Positions 9,109 to 38,596 of a stretch of 39,017 nt of DNA are shown here, in pieces. This DNA comes from an uncultured Bdellovibrionales bacterium (GTDB lineage Bacteria > Bdellovibrionota > Bdellovibrionia > Bdellovibrionales > UBA1609): assembly GCA_937936325.1 (NCBI GenBank), contig CALGWV010000066.1, positions 1 through 39,017 of the forward strand. The letters run 5' to 3'. The translations under genes and the position numbers were made by a program. The notes beneath the pieces are model-generated. The model had not been told where the DNA came from. It saw only the letters and a list, made by a program, of their open reading frames with translations, and did not search any database. Every line of letters starts with the position of its first letter. Within the stretch, counting starts at the first letter, position 1.

Positions 9109-9132
9109 CAAATAGAATTATCTCACACTTAG

Positions 9133-9183
9133 GTGCCAGTCCCCTTTTTAGAATGCAGCGCATCCTAAAAAGGGGACTGGCAC
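9133..9183. repeat. GTGCCAGTCCCC palindrome (REP-like), copy 1
   Basis: A 24-bp stem with one mismatch has a 3-nt loop. The left arm begins GTGCCAGTCCCCTTTTTAG; the right arm is its complement ending GGGGACTGGCAC. The same palindrome with slightly different inner sequence lies at 34026-34077. The layout resembles REP elements mobilised by tyrosine transposases of the RAYT family; no such transposase gene is in the window. It sits between the divergent mutY and decarboxylase starts. Confidence 0.88.
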
Positions 9184-9208
9184 TGAAGTAGCAGGCATGA
9201 TTTTGTTT

Positions 9209-10703: not shown

Positions 10704-10873
10704 TAGAGCTTGGAGTTTATATAAAGGAAAACTAGGAGTATGAAGCTAAAGCGAAGTGTGCATGGCGTATCTTGAGCCGCGCCATTTACTAATGGTGAGG
10801 CTCGGGAGACGACCTGCACCCACAAGCGTGCTTTATATTCCTAGTTTTCCTTTATATAAACTCCGAGATTCTA
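10704..10873 (+). repeat. Long-armed palindromic element E1 with structured core
   Basis: The arms of about 43 bp pair almost perfectly: TTTATATAAAGGAAAACTAG on the left with its exact complement on the right. Inside, AAAGCG and AAGCGTGCTTT bracket a core in which GUG-UGCA-GG pairs with CC-UGCA-CC-CAC. Then comes GCGTATCTTG, a hairpin made of GAGCC/GGCTC and GCCATT/AATGG, and CGGGAGACGACCTGC. The core motif matches the element at 15201-15400 in sequence and fold, while the outer arms share nothing. The right end stops 1 bp before the arginase-family stop codon. Confidence 0.78.
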
Positions 10874-13503: not shown

Positions 13504-13609
13504 GCTAATACCCAGTCCGAGGATAATTGGAGGTGAAGCCCCATGAAGCCCACGCCTCTAACATCGTGTTCAAAATGTTCTCTTTCAGCTTTTACAGGTG
13601 AGTAGGATT

Positions 13610-13687
13610 CAAGAGAAAATTTCTGCGCTAGACACTGCTGAAGCAGGTTTGATGGGTTTTTCCTCACCGCTTATTCGCCGATCTGGG
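13610..13687 (+). repeat. Dispersed repeat block B (middle copy)
   Basis: The 78-bp block from CAAGAGAAAATTTCTGCG to GATCTGGG recurs inverted at 38512-38588 with roughly 85-90% identity by eye. One frame stays open in both copies (residues such as EKISALD, AEAGLMGFSSPLIR against EKVSALD, AEACLMGFSPPLIR), and one frame on the other strand is also open, so a decayed coding origin is possible. A short upstream match (CCCCATGAAGCCC) hints at a larger decayed unit. It lies 35 bp before the lpxH-like gene. Confidence 0.72.
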
Positions 13688-15200: not shown

Positions 15201-15400
15201 AATTCGAATAAGGAAAGATTTATTCCATCAGTTTCAAATCTGAGAAGACTACTTTTAAAAGCGTCCAGCGTCGCGCAGAGCGTATCTCGCTTGGCGCCAC
15301 GAAGTGGAGCGATGCGGAAGACGACCTGCGGCCGAAAGCGTGCTTTTGAAAGTGGTCTTCTCAGATTTGAAACTGATGGAATACGGCCCTCATTCAATTT
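15201..15400 (+). repeat. Long-armed palindromic element E2 with structured core
   Basis: The gap 15035-15393 holds no gene but holds this element. The main arms, 15221-15262 and 15339-15383, pair over about 41 bp with two mismatches (ATTCCATCAGTTTCAAATCT and its complement). The core has UCG-CGCAG pairing with CUGCG-GC-CGA, then GCGTATCTCG, a hairpin made of TCGCT/AGCGA and CCAC/GTGG around GAA, and GCGGAAGACGACCTGC. Core and right flank (AAAGCGTGCTTT) match the element at 10704-10873, but the arms do not. The outermost right arm contains the recN stop codon (15394-15396). Confidence 0.78.
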
Positions 15401-26151: not shown

Positions 26152-26178
26152 AGCTCCCCTTCTAGTACTAGTGGGGCT
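26152..26178. terminator. Hairpin after the M23 peptidase gene
   Basis: The 26078-26378 gap holds no gene. It contains AGCTCCCC pairing with GGGGCT around an inner CTAGTACTAG, about 75 bp after the stop of the peptidase gene. There is no T run after it, but a T tract precedes it at 26111-26119. It probably marks the end of the phosphatase-peptidase transcript. Confidence 0.4.
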
Positions 26179-26378
26179 GCGGAAGATTCATATTGATTTT
26201 GTAAGCCTCACCTCCAAAGAATTTGAACTATGCTCGCCTAAACTCTTATCGAAGCCGCTCAAGGCCAATCCTTTGGAAAGCTCAGTCGGGGCTCAGCTCG
26301 ACTTCAGTTGAATTTGATGCTTCTAAAACCAATATGAATCTTCCACAGTCCCTAGTTTTATGGGAAGGAGAGGTTGTT

Positions 26379-32618: not shown

Positions 32619-34043
32619 ATGAAAGCATTAAAAGATTTACTTCAGTCTGCTCAAAAACAAGCTTGGAAAGCCAGCACCCATGATAAAAGTAGTGGGGTTT
32701 TTTTTGCCTGCCGCGGAGTGAGTTCAGATGGGCATAGTTATCTTGAATCTGCTTCAAAAACCCACCAGGCTCTTGTGGTTTCAAAAGATGTTCATCTTAA
32801 AAACTACAGTGGCATCATTTTTAAGGTAGAGGATGTAAACCTGGCTTTAGAGCTCTATTTACAAAGTTACTTTCAAATTGATTTTGAAAGCCTTCAGCTG
32901 ATAGCGATTACGGGGACCAATGGTAAAACCACCTGTGCCCACATGTTAGAGCATATGCTGACTCAAGTGGGCTACCAAGTGGGTGTGATGGGGACGATCA
33001 ATCACCATATTGGGGACAGGGTTTGGGAGACCAACTTGACCACGCCGGGGCTTATTTCATTTTATGAACGCTTGAATGATTTTAAAAACTTAAAAGCAGA
33101 TTATGTTGTTTTTGAAATCTCAAGCCACGCCTTGGAGCAAGAGCGTGTGGGGACGCCACCGCTAAGGGCTGCCGTTTTTACAAACTTATCCCAAGATCAC
33201 TTGGACTTTCATAAAGATATGGAGTCTTATTTTAAAAGCAAGCTCAAGTTGTTTACAGAAGTCCTTGCAAAGAGTCCGATTAAAAATAAATTTGCGGTTC
33301 TTAATGGGGACACTCCCCAAAGCGATAAAATCAAATCTGAAATTTCAAATCAAAATATAATCACTGTGAGTTTAAACGAGGTCAAAAATATTAAATCTGA
33401 TTTTAATAAAACGAGCTTCTCTTTAGATCATGAAAAGTTAGAACTCAACTGCTTTGGTCCTTTTAATTTGCATAATTGGCTTATGATGTGGCGTCTCTGT
33501 GAGGAGCTATTAAAAGAGAACCCCGAGCTCACAAGTTATAAAAACCATAAAAAGCTTTTAGAAAGCTATAAAACCACATCCGGTAGAATGGAAATGGTTC
33601 ATGTCAAGCCTAGAGTGTTTGTAGACTTTGCTCACACACCAGAGTCATTATCTGGGGTTCTAAAAAATTTAAAAGCTTTAAACCCATCTCGTTTGTTAGT
33701 ATTGTTTGGGTGTGGCGGTGATCGAGATACCACAAAGCGCGCCCTTATGGGGCAGGCTGCCGAAGAATTTTCAGATGGAGTTATTTTAACCTCAGATAAT
33801 CCAAGAACGGAAGCTCCTGAGAAAATCATAAAAGACATTAAGCGAGGCCTTGTTAGAGCTCCCTTGTTTGAGCATCCAGATCGCGCCAAAGCCATCGAGT
33901 GGGCCTTGGCAAAGCTTGAACCCGATGACTGTTTGTTAATTGCAGGTAAAGGGCACGAGCAGACTCAAGAGGTTGATGGAGTAAAATATAAATTTTCAGA
34001 TCAGGCCATTGTAAAGAAGACTTTAGCGCCAGTCCCCTTTTGA
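32619..34043 (+). CDS. murE: UDP-MurNAc-tripeptide synthetase MurE (meso-DAP-adding)
   Basis: MurE adds the third residue to the peptidoglycan precursor in the cytoplasm. The 474-residue protein has ATP site TGTNGKTT (98-105), TTPGL, EISSHALEQ, NLSQDHLDFH, the lysine carbamylation region SYFKSKLKLF, DFAHTPESL, GCGGDRDTTKR, and the DNPR motif (393-396) that marks meso-diaminopimelate specificity. The last five residues and stop codon (LAPVPF region) come from the inserted GTGCCAGTCCCC palindrome, so the natural C-terminus has been replaced just after FSDQAIVKKTL. There is no clear Shine-Dalgarno. The usual upstream ftsI and ftsL are absent. Confidence 0.96.
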   Translation: MKALKDLLQSAQKQAWKASTHDKSSGVFFACRGVSSDGHSYLESASKTHQALVVSKDVHLKNYSGIIFKVEDVNLALELYLQSYFQIDFESLQLIAITGTNGKTTCAHMLEHMLTQVGYQVGVMGTINHHIGDRVWETNLTTPGLISFYERLNDFKNLKADYVVFEISSHALEQERVGTPPLRAAVFTNLSQDHLDFHKDMESYFKSKLKLFTEVLAKSPIKNKFAVLNGDTPQSDKIKSEISNQNIITVSLNEVKNIKSDFNKTSFSLDHEKLELNCFGPFNLHNWLMMWRLCEELLKENPELTSYKNHKKLLESYKTTSGRMEMVHVKPRVFVDFAHTPESLSGVLKNLKALNPSRLLVLFGCGGDRDTTKRALMGQAAEEFSDGVILTSDNPRTEAPEKIIKDIKRGLVRAPLFEHPDRAKAIEWALAKLEPDDCLLIAGKGHEQTQEVDGVKYKFSDQAIVKKTLAPVPF

Positions 34044-34077
34044 GGATAGGGTGTATCCTCAAAAGGGGACTGGCACC
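34026..34077. repeat. GTGCCAGTCCCC palindrome (REP-like), copy 2, overlapping the murE stop
   Basis: The arms of about 23 bp (GCGCCAGTCCCCTTTTGAGG on the left, with a T-to-C change from the right arm's complement) flank a 5-nt loop. The left arm encodes the last murE residues, and its TTTTGA supplies the TGA stop at 34041-34043. The outer 17 bp are the same as in copy 1 at 9133-9183. It lies between murE and murF, 36 bp before the murF start. Confidence 0.88.
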
Positions 34078-34112
34078 AAAGAGGGCTTAAATAGTTTCAA
34101 GGTGGGTAAAAA

Positions 34113-35498
34113 ATGAAGTGGGATATAGATCAAATTTTGGAGTGGACTGGGGGGAGCTTGGTTCAAAGTGGAGAAAGCTCTTCGTGGGATCAGGTCACTA
34201 CAGACACTCGTAAATCAAATGGGGGGCAATTTTTTATACCTCTTTTGGGTCCAAATTTTGATGCCCATGATTTTATAGAGCAGGCCCTTGATTCTGGGGT
34301 TACGGCTTTCATCACACATAAAGACATAGAAAATATTCCTAAAAACGTGACTGTCATTCAGGTCAAAGATACATTGCTGGCTCTTCATAAATGGGCGCGA
34401 GCTTATCGTCAAACTTTAAATTTAAAAGTTCTCGCCTTTACGGGAACCAACGGCAAAACAAGCACTAAAGAGTTTTTAAAAACTATAGTTTCCCCTTACA
34501 GAAAGTGTTTTTCCCCTGAAGGCAGTTTTAATAATCACTGGGGCGTGCCCTTAAGTCTTTTGAAGCTGGACTCCACCCATGAGATGGGTCTTTTTGAGCT
34601 TGGAATGAATCATGCTGGAGAGATAGCTGAGCTGGTAGATTTGGTTTTACCTGATGCCGTCCATGTCACTAATGTGGGAGCTGGCCATATGGAATTTTTT
34701 AAAAGTTTGGAGGATGTCTCTTTGGCCAAGGCTGAAATTTATCAGGCTTCAGAGGCTCAGGTCTTATTCAATCTAGACAACCCTTGGACATTGAAACATT
34801 TTGAAGAGTACCAAGAATCAAAAATTCCACTGACTTATTCAGAAAATAAAAAAGAGGCGGACCTTTGTTTTTACATCAAAGAATCTCATTGGGATCATTT
34901 TGATATTGAGGCTCGAATATTAGATCAAAATGCTGTTTTGAAAATCCCTTTAGTGGGAAGCTTTCATGTCGGCAACCTCATGGCGGCTTCCGGTCTGGCT
35001 TTGATGGGGGGGCTCACTCCCCAAGAGATTTTTAAAAGTTTGCCTCAAGTTCAAGCTTTTTGGGGGCGCATGCAAAGTTATAGGGTTGAATCTGGTCCAC
35101 AGCTTTTATTTGATGCTTATAACTCTAACCCGCAGAGCTTTCATGCTCTTTTAGAGCATATCGAAAAACATATTAAAGATTTACCAGGAGAGCTTCATTT
35201 TGTTTTAGGAGATATGTTAGAGTTGGGGAAGCTTTCAGAAGATGAGCATGTTAAAATTTTTAAAAGACTGGAGGATTTAAATCTTAAAAGCATTTTGTAT
35301 TTTGGTGAGTATTCTGGGCTATTGTTTTCAGAAAACAAATGCAATACAAAGCTTTACAGTGATACTGAGTTTAATGTGAGTTTGGCTAATGAGTTTGTTC
35401 AACGGGTTTCTGACGATGCTCTTGTTATTTTTAAGTCTTCCAGAGGAGGACGCTTGGAGAGAGTTTTGGATATATTTTTAGATAGGGATGAATTATGA
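34113..35498 (+). CDS. murF: UDP-MurNAc-tripeptide:D-Ala-D-Ala ligase MurF
   Basis: MurF adds D-Ala-D-Ala to complete the UDP-MurNAc-pentapeptide. The product (461 aa) has the substrate-binding start with [18 protein letters not shown] site GTNGKTST (111-118), [46 protein letters not shown] and [10 protein letters not shown] good Shine-Dalgarno (AAGGTGGG) precedes the ATG. The stop overlaps the mraY start by 4 bases, so the pair is translationally coupled. Confidence 0.97.
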
Positions 35499-36571
35499 TT
35501 TATGAATGGATTTATAGTTTTTCAGATTCTTATTCTTATTTAAATGTGTTTCGATATGTGACCTTCAGAACTTTTATCAGTTTTTTAACTGCCTTTTTTA
35601 GCTCACTTATTCTAGGACCAATACTCATTCGCAAACTTAAAAGTCTTCAGTTCAAGCAAAGTATTCGTGAGCTAGGTCCCAAGTCTCACCAAAAAAAATC
35701 AGGCACTCCAACGATGGGTGGGCTTTTGATTTTAGTCAGTCTTTTAATTCCGAGTTTATTGTGGATCCAGCTTTCAAATCCCCTTGTGCTTTCATTACTT
35801 TTTGTCACTTTTAGTTTTGGATTGGTTGGGTTTGTAGATGACTACATGAAAGTGGCTTTTAAAAGCTCTGATGGCCTGTCTGGAAAGATCAGGTTGGTTT
35901 TAGAATTTGCATGTGCTTTCTTAGCTGTTTTTTTTCTGACTCAATCGGGCTATATCGATACAGAGCTTACAGTTCCATTTTTGAAAAATACGAGTTTTGA
36001 CCTGGGTCTTTTTTATACTTTTTTTGGAAGTTTTGTGATTGTAGGTTGTGCCAATGCTGTAAACTTTACAGATGGTTTGGATGGCTTAGCCATTGGCCCT
36101 GTGATGGTGGCCGCCAGTACATTTTTAATTTTTAGTTATATATCTGGTCATGTGATCATAGCTGAATACCTAGGAATACCTTATGTGAAAGGAGCTGCAG
36201 AGCTCACTCCTTTAATAGCAGCTTTAGTGGCCTCGGGTATGGGGTTTTTATGGTTTAACTCCCATCCTGCTGAGATTTTCATGGGGGATGTGGGGAGTTT
36301 AAGCTTAGGAGGCACTTTAGGGATGCTTGCCGTTTTGACTAATAATGAAATTTTGTTGGTTTTGCTAGGTGGAATATTCGTGGTAGAAACCCTTTCAGTG
36401 ATTATTCAGGTGCTTTACTTTAAACGCACGGGCAAAAGGGTCTTTCGAATGGCCCCAATACATCATCATTTCGAGCTCAAAGGCATGGATGAAACCAAAA
36501 TTATTGTGAGATTTTGGATCGTCTCCATTTTGCTGGCTGTTGTCTGTCTGACGACTCTCAAGTTAAGATAA
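35495..36571 (+). CDS. mraY: Phospho-MurNAc-pentapeptide transferase MraY
   Basis: MraY is a membrane enzyme that transfers phospho-MurNAc-pentapeptide to undecaprenyl phosphate, making lipid I. The 358-residue protein shows about ten membrane helices and the family motifs KSGTPTMGG (68-76), FVDDYMKV with Asp115-Asp116, the catalytic region [12 protein letters not shown] (190-201), [12 protein letters not shown], and [11 protein letters not shown] near the end. It follows murF with an ATGA overlap. The next mur gene is separated by 285 bp containing a foldback element, which is unusual in this operon. Confidence 0.97.
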
Positions 36572-36647
36572 TTAACATTAAACCAGGGGCCATTCCCTGT
36601 TGCTCCGACACTTCTACTTTATGCTAAGACATATTACCTTACTGAGC

Positions 36648-36830
36648 AGGGTCTGTTGAAGATGGGTAAGTGCACTGCAAAAACCATCTCAAGTCGAAAT
36701 TAAAATGGACGCTGACTAAATAAAGCTCGACTTAGTTAGAACTAAGCCATCACTTTATTCAGTCTGCGTGCATTTTACTTTCTCGTGAGTTGATTTTTTC
36801 GTTTGCACTTACCCACCTTCAACAGACCCT
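36648..36830. mobile_element. Foldback MITE-like element between mraY and murD
   Basis: The whole 183 bp is one long imperfect palindrome. The ends are inverted repeats of 27 bp with one mismatch (AGGGTCTGTTGAAG, then TGGGTAAGTGCA), the arms pair with scattered mismatches to the middle, and the centre is CTTAGTT AG AACTAAG. It encodes nothing. The end GGGTCTGTTG resembles IS6-type ends loosely; family is not settled. I see no clear target-site duplication. It interrupts the mur operon 77 bp after mraY and 26 bp before murD. Confidence 0.82.
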
Positions 36831-36856
36831 ATTAATTAAATTGAGGAGATCTCCAA

Positions 36857-38357: not shown

Positions 38358-38511
38358 AATCGTTGATAATTTCGACAAGAGCAAAGATTTCTCCAGCATA
38401 AAAACCGCTGTACTGTATAATACGAACTTTGGTTTCTTACGCTAAGAGTTTTTATGAGTTTTTTATACTTCTTTCTATTCTTTTTCAGTTAGCTCTAAAA
38501 GAATATTTATA

Positions 38512-38588
38512 CCCAGATCCGCGGATAAGCGGCGGTGAAAAACCCATCAAACATGCTTCAGCAGAGTCTAGCGCAGAAACTTTCTCTT
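38512..38588 (-). repeat. Dispersed repeat block B (right copy)
   Basis: This is the inverted second copy of the block at 13610-13687, from CCCAGATCCGCGG to CTTTCTCTTGG on the plus strand. Between the murD terminator and this block (38358-38511) I see no gene. A perfect TATAAT at about 38416-38421 has no matching -35, and the open frame that follows runs into the repeats and looks spurious. Confidence 0.72.
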
Positions 38589-38596
38589 GGTTCTCA

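What the first reader, a model, noticed from the sequence alone, without database searches (positions are those of the whole stretch)
36648..36830. 183-bp foldback element inside the mur operon
An almost full-length palindrome with 27-bp terminal inverted repeats separates mraY from murD in a cluster whose other genes overlap or nearly touch. It has no coding capacity, so it looks like a MITE or a solo foldback element needing a transposase elsewhere. Its hairpin in the mRNA could reduce read-through to murD or create an RNase III site, giving murD separate control.
Basis: partly seen in the sequence, partly recalled or inferred. Interest (0 to 1): 0.6.

Follow-up and report, generated by a model that had tools for sequence, protein, structure and literature searches.

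The report
Repeated hairpin element splitting mraY-murD
The 183-base hairpin between two cell-wall genes is one of about 40 scattered, slowly decaying copies of a small non-coding mobile DNA element (a MITE) in this predatory-bacterium relative; it is a new family of a well-known kind, and nothing shows that it was built to control murD.

Summary
In detail: window 36648-36830 is a 183-bp near-perfect foldback with 26/27-matched ends (RNA fold -86.9 kcal/mol, z = -12.2). It sits in a 285-bp mraY-murD gap. The MITE reading is well supported. The same genome (2.06 Mb, order of Bdellovibrio) holds about 40 full or partial copies, almost all intergenic and in both orientations. Their consensus ends are TAGGGGCTGTGGAAGATTC...GAATCTTCCACAGCCCCTA. 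Of 28 aligned copies, 21 keep TA on both sides, inside a YTA...TAR target. None of 39 relatives has the element, and most have only about 0-10 bp between mraY and murD. No transposase with these ends was found in the genome or among the related transposases tested, so the mobilising partner is unknown. The arms covary along the whole length (35 of 72 pairs; 0/500 shuffles). These paired changes mostly separate subfamilies, whereas changes private to one copy mostly break pairs. So the palindrome is kept in the source lineage while inserted copies decay, which argues against a selected RNA function at each site, murD included. Related ends occur in another genus of the family and in two gammaproteobacterial contigs. 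Verdict: new member of a known kind; effects on murD are untested by-products.

The parts
36648..36830 (.). the foldback element (MITE copy), 183 bp
   Evidence: fold z -12.2, matches at 37 distinct places in the genome
36648..36674 (+). left terminal inverted repeat, 27 bp
   Evidence: 26 of 27 match the right end
36804..36830 (-). right terminal inverted repeat, 27 bp
36646..36648 (.). left target remnant GCA; consensus here is YTA, so the left T is mutated in this copy
   Evidence: TA at the 5' end in 24 of 28 copies
36830..36831 (.). right TA of the presumed TA target duplication
   Evidence: TA at the 3' end in 24 of 28 copies, both ends in 21 of 28
36675..36700 (+). left subterminal conserved block CACTNCAAAAANCATCTCAAGTCGAAA, the best-conserved part of the family together with its counterpart; contains conserved unpaired bases
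   Evidence: 0.92 identity against 0.82-0.83 in the terminal repeats
36777..36804 (+). right subterminal conserved block ACTTTCTCGTGAGCTGNTTTTCTCGTTTG
   Evidence: 0.93
35495..36571 (+). mraY, upstream neighbour
   Evidence: TIGR00445, 410 bits
36857..38287 (+). murD, downstream neighbour
   Evidence: TIGR01087, 409 bits
26171..26354 (.). second foldback in the window: same terminal repeat, different interior (family 2; 9 copies aligned)

Best explanation
The element is one copy of a lineage-specific family of non-autonomous mobile elements (MITEs) about 183 bp long. A transposase acting in trans, not identified here, recognises the roughly 19-27-bp terminal repeats (TAGGGNCTGTKGAAnATTC) and pastes the element into YTAR sites, leaving TA on both sides (inferred from anatomy). 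The whole element is a palindrome, and its pairing was maintained in the source lineage while subfamilies diverged, either because the transposition machinery needs it or because replication template switching keeps repairing one arm from the other. After landing, copies decay (shown: changes private to one copy mostly break pairs). This copy landed between mraY and murD in an ancestor of this genome. It now adds a long hairpin to any mraY-murD transcript, which may lower or cleave the message as a side effect (inferred, untested).
For: 37 distinct places in G000 plus two more full copies. Terminal motif 143 times against 30 for the reversed control. Ends pair at about 185 bp. TA on both sides in 21 of 28 copies, Y before it in 25 of 28 and R after it in 24 of 28. 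Nearly all intergenic, both orientations: 18 tandem (12/6), 11 divergent, 2 convergent. Absent from 39 relatives. mraY-murD gap about 0-10 bp in most relatives against 285 bp here. Full-length covariation, 35 of 72 pairs, 0/500 shuffles, slid controls far lower. Singleton changes: 55 of 71 break a pair and 5 are Watson-Crick doubles; shared changes include 89 Watson-Crick doubles. Sister families with the same ends and other interiors, one of them 93-99% identical. Related ends on 92-bp and 49-bp foldbacks in another genus of the family and on foldbacks in two gammaproteobacterial contigs.
Against: No autonomous element with these ends was found: DDE_Tnp_1, DDE_3, IS5_3, Y1 and DDE_Tnp_1_2 families in the own genome, ends checked, IS630-type and IS4/IS5-type transposases of the order. 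No clean empty site could be shown: no close relative is held, and other genera are too diverged. Only the ends, not movement, point to transposition. The interior block is better conserved than the terminal repeats, which is not the usual MITE pattern.
Confidence: 0.87

Rival explanations
1. A fixed cis-regulatory RNA of the mur operon: the hairpin evolved to separate murD expression from mraY, by attenuation or RNase III cleavage.
For: Very stable hairpin within an operon gap; placed just upstream of murD's start.
Against: Same sequence family at about 40 unrelated sites in both orientations; absent from the genomes of all relatives tested, most of which have almost no mraY-murD gap; no Rfam family beyond two sub-threshold plant-type microRNA hairpin matches; no coding-strand terminator or promoter; private changes mostly break pairs.
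Confidence: 0.03
2. A family of functional structured RNAs or protein-binding sites spread by duplication, where the hairpin and its conserved internal loops are the selected product (RNA-level function at many loci).
For: Covariation along the full length; best-conserved part is a subterminal block with conserved unpaired bases.
Against: Compensation sits in subfamily-level differences, not in single copies; 16-bp deletions of half of the conserved block in five copies and one-sided remnants are tolerated; no consistent gene orientation.
Confidence: 0.07
3. A REP/BIME-type palindrome moved by a REP-associated tyrosine transposase or other single-strand mechanism.
For: Palindromic, intergenic, dispersed; full-length hairpin conserved.
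Against: No Y1 transposase in the genome; symmetrical TA ends and a TA target are not the GTAG/CGTC-tagged REP pattern (title and abstract of PMC3733652).
Confidence: 0.03

Closest known systems
ERIC and YPAL elements of enterobacteria
   Same: Dispersed, mostly intergenic, 127 bp and about 168 bp, predicted to fold into stem-loops (PMC2267715); ERIC hairpins change neighbouring transcript levels (PMC2267715, PMC10969869).
   Different: Different order of bacteria; no sequence comparison with them was made. To my knowledge the enzyme that moves ERIC and YPAL is also unknown.
RUP of Streptococcus pneumoniae
   Same: Short, non-coding, terminal repeats, TA target, about 100 copies (PMC2229807).
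   Different: RUP ends match IS630-Spn1; no IS630-type element fetched from this genome or order carried the present ends.
Correia/NEMIS elements of Neisseria
   Same: Small foldback element; transcripts cut by RNase III (PMC2229807, PMC10969869).
   Different: 106-158 bp, other ends; RNase III cutting is not shown here.
Template-switch-maintained hairpins
   Same: Mechanism proposed to create and maintain paired changes in hairpins (abstract of PMC8794818).
   Different: Here it is only one of two possible reasons for the covarying arms.

Membership tests
MITE (100-400 bp, terminal inverted repeats, usually TA at the ends, no proteins, stable stem-loop; PMC5896051) | short, non-coding, with terminal inverted repeats | tested here: met
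   183 bp, 26/27 bp ends, no ORF of 80 aa or more
MITE | multiple dispersed copies in the genome | tested here: met
   about 40 places
MITE | target duplication (TA) | tested here: inconclusive
   TA on both sides in 21 of 28, YTA/TAR context; no empty site found; this copy has CA on the left
MITE | mobilised in trans by an autonomous element sharing its ends | tested here: inconclusive
   none found among the transposase families tested; the assembly is in 138 contigs and not all families were tried, so this is not a firm absence
IS630/Tc1-mariner-derived MITE | ends like those of an IS630 element | tested here: not met
   no IS630-type locus fetched from the order carries TAGGGNCTGTKGA ends, though several show their own TA-bounded ends
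REP/RAYT system | Y1 tyrosine transposase in the genome | tested here: not met
   no match
Rfam RNA family | match above gathering score | tested here: not met
   only MIR841 at 43.1 bits (gathering 200) and MIR946 at 21.9 (gathering 190)
Correia/NEMIS-like regulator | RNase III processing of the hairpin | not testable with these tools
   needs RNA data

The most novel reading that the evidence does not exclude
The whole hairpin with its conserved asymmetric internal loops, and not just the terminal repeats, is what the mobilising enzyme recognises (a folded single-strand or cruciform substrate), so that the arms must covary along the full length for the lineage to keep moving.
Probability: 0.12. 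Interest if true: 0.6.

Novelty: new member of a known kind. Interest (0 to 1): 0.3.

Why it matters
It adds a MITE clan to the order of the predatory bacterium Bdellovibrio: a search of the held papers for MITE terms together with Bdellovibrio found none. Its subfamilies give a clear natural test of how bacterial foldback elements keep both arms matched: paired changes accumulate in the source lineage and are lost after insertion. The mraY-murD insertion shows that even an essential cell-wall operon tolerates a 183-nt hairpin.

Tried and rejected
Exact interior pattern in genome contigs: no match (the own genome may be left out). Blast of the element and flanks to plasmids and phages: no match. 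Ends of the IS-like loci L040-L044 compared with the terminal repeats of all foldback families: no convincing match. IS630-type and IS4/IS5-type loci of the order scanned for the ends: none. Joined flanks as empty sites: the two kinds of spanning hit were a 12-bp overlap into another repeat and a self-match. Rfam hits to plant microRNA hairpins were rejected as chance likeness of long stems. RNAalifold with default settings recovered only the outer 17 pairs, so pairs were counted on the consensus fold instead. Integron attC sites were considered and dropped by eye: no cassette array and no GTTRRRY-type ends (from memory, not tested).

Full report
Observation. The foldback is real and at the stated coordinates. 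The outer 27 bp match 26/27; the whole 183 nt folds at -86.9 kcal/mol with z = -12.2 and no shuffle as good. It carries no ORF of 80 aa or more. Its neighbours are mraY and murD. The genome is a 2.06-Mb, 138-contig assembly, 99.3% complete. It belongs to the order of Bdellovibrio: a same-family genome, G122, corresponds to the MAG 'Bdellovibrionales bacterium HKST-UBA07' (same contig positions and lengths), and a window protein matches the Bd0486 family.

Copies. A search of the own genome with the element gave 39 matches, resolved into 37 distinct places; a consensus query added full copies at C31:1393 and C39:19047. The terminal motif with up to 3 mismatches occurs 143 times on both strands against 30 for the reversed control pattern, and its occurrences mostly pair face to face at about 170-188 bp. 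The window copy is closest to C3:33112 (87%) and mostly 70-80% identical to the others; at least four subfamilies differ in their ends and interior. Short derivatives of about 50 bp, little more than two terminal repeats, and one-sided remnants also exist. Five copies lack the same 16 bp between two TTTCTCG repeats.

Ends and target. In 28 trimmed copies TA is present at the left end in 24, at the right in 24 and at both in 21; the base before is Y in 25 of 28 and the base after is R in 24 of 28. This is what insertion into YTAR with TA duplication would leave. The window copy keeps TA only on the right. From memory, IS630 targets CTAG with TA duplication, so this family's enzyme may be of that kind, but the test below did not support IS630.

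Placing. Almost all copies lie between genes: 18 tandem (12 in one element orientation, 6 in the other), 11 divergent, 2 convergent, 6 undecided at contig ends or large gaps (ORF-based, no annotation). No consistent position relative to starts or stops appears. In 27 relatives with both genes on the held stretch, murD follows mraY mostly within about 0-10 bp; a few have 40-126 bp and one about 220 bp, and the window genome has 285 bp. No relative among 39 has the element at all.

Structure and evolution. On a 72-pair consensus structure, 86.8% of cells pair; 35 pairs show changes on both sides against 17.6 +/- 2.7 in shuffles (0 of 500), and structures slid by 1-3 columns give a covariation score of 0.05-0.06 against 0.188. 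The structure was derived from the consensus of these sequences, so the percentage of pairing leans in its favour; the shuffles do not keep relatedness. The covariation includes the interior helix (12 of 27 pairs), not only the terminal repeats. Splitting changes by how widely they are shared is the key result: of 71 changes private to one copy, 55 break the pair and 5 are Watson-Crick doubles, whereas changes shared by more copies include 89 Watson-Crick doubles. Nearest-neighbour comparisons say the same: 311 one-sided against 74 two-sided changes, 30.6 expected by chance; these comparisons share sequences and are not independent. So matching arms are a property of the moving lineage, and inserted copies decay. 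Whether the lineage keeps its arms matched by a need of the transposition machinery or by template switching between arms (PMC8794818) cannot be told here. The best-conserved part is not the terminal repeat (0.82-0.83) but a subterminal block on each side (0.92-0.93), including bases that do not pair; this is a candidate binding site.

Partner. DDE_Tnp_1, DDE_3, IS5_3, DDE_Tnp_1_2 and Y1 families were searched in the own genome. The few transposase loci found do not carry these ends; one IS630-type gene is interrupted by another insertion sequence, so its left end could not be read. Of IS630-type and IS4/IS5-type loci across 141 genomes of the order, those fetched do not carry the ends either. 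The partner may be lost, lie in a contig gap, or belong to an untested family.

Clan. Family 2 (9 copies aligned, including window 26171-26354) has the same terminal repeat and a different interior; family 3 (six copies, 93-99% identical) has TAGGGTGTGTTGACAATTC ends and looks recent. In G122, another genus of the same family, six places carry TAGGGGCTGTKGAAAATTC, with 92-bp and 49-bp foldbacks, and its interior resembles family 3 (weak blast match, 38 bp at 82%). A Legionella MAG has a 62-bp foldback and a gammaproteobacterial MAG a 146-bp foldback with these ends. The ends therefore look like those of a wider transposon group that I could not name.

Verdict. This is a new family of an ordinary kind. 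The murD control reading is unsupported and any effect is probably only a side effect of insertion. An RNase III or read-through effect is plausible by analogy with Correia elements (PMC2229807, PMC10969869) and can be tested easily.

Noticed in passing
window 38506-38590 and 13508-13687; also L015, L029, L036, L037, L045, L072: A second, unrelated foldback repeat (CCCAGATCCGCGGATAAGCGGCGGTRAAAACCCATG...), about 180-200 bp, many copies; one is inserted inside a copy of the studied element at C95:6156. Near the window's two ends longer repeated sequence matches in inverted orientation (I2, I8, I9), probably why the contig stops.
   Followed up: partly
window 26171-26354: Foldback with the same terminal repeat as the finding but another interior; nine copies aligned.
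   Followed up: yes
window 15221-15383 and 10709-10867: Two further 159-163-bp foldbacks with 92-95% complementary arms of 38-42 bp and other ends, one TA-bounded.
   Followed up: no
window 9127-9189 and 34021-34081: Short hairpin repeat with GTGCCAGTCCCCTTTT arms; one copy overlaps the end of murE and reaches into the murE-murF gap.
   Followed up: no
L063:962-1143, L064:967-1148, also L065, L066, L021, L067: Family 3 foldback, 182 bp, 93-99% identical between six copies: a recently active relative of the studied element.
   Followed up: partly
L053 and L082 (C14:19685-19851, C92:2315-2481): 167-bp foldback with TATACTGGGCACACTTAGG ends in two copies; the ends vaguely resemble the 3' end of the single IS630-type gene on C102.
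   Followed up: partly
L044/L083 (C102): IS630-type transposase gene cut by another insertion sequence whose ends read CCGACATTGATCA, also found on C2 (L041).
   Followed up: partly
L151:1015-1160 and L153:4928-4989: Gammaproteobacterial MAGs (one named uncultured Legionella) with foldbacks bearing nearly the same ends.
   Followed up: partly
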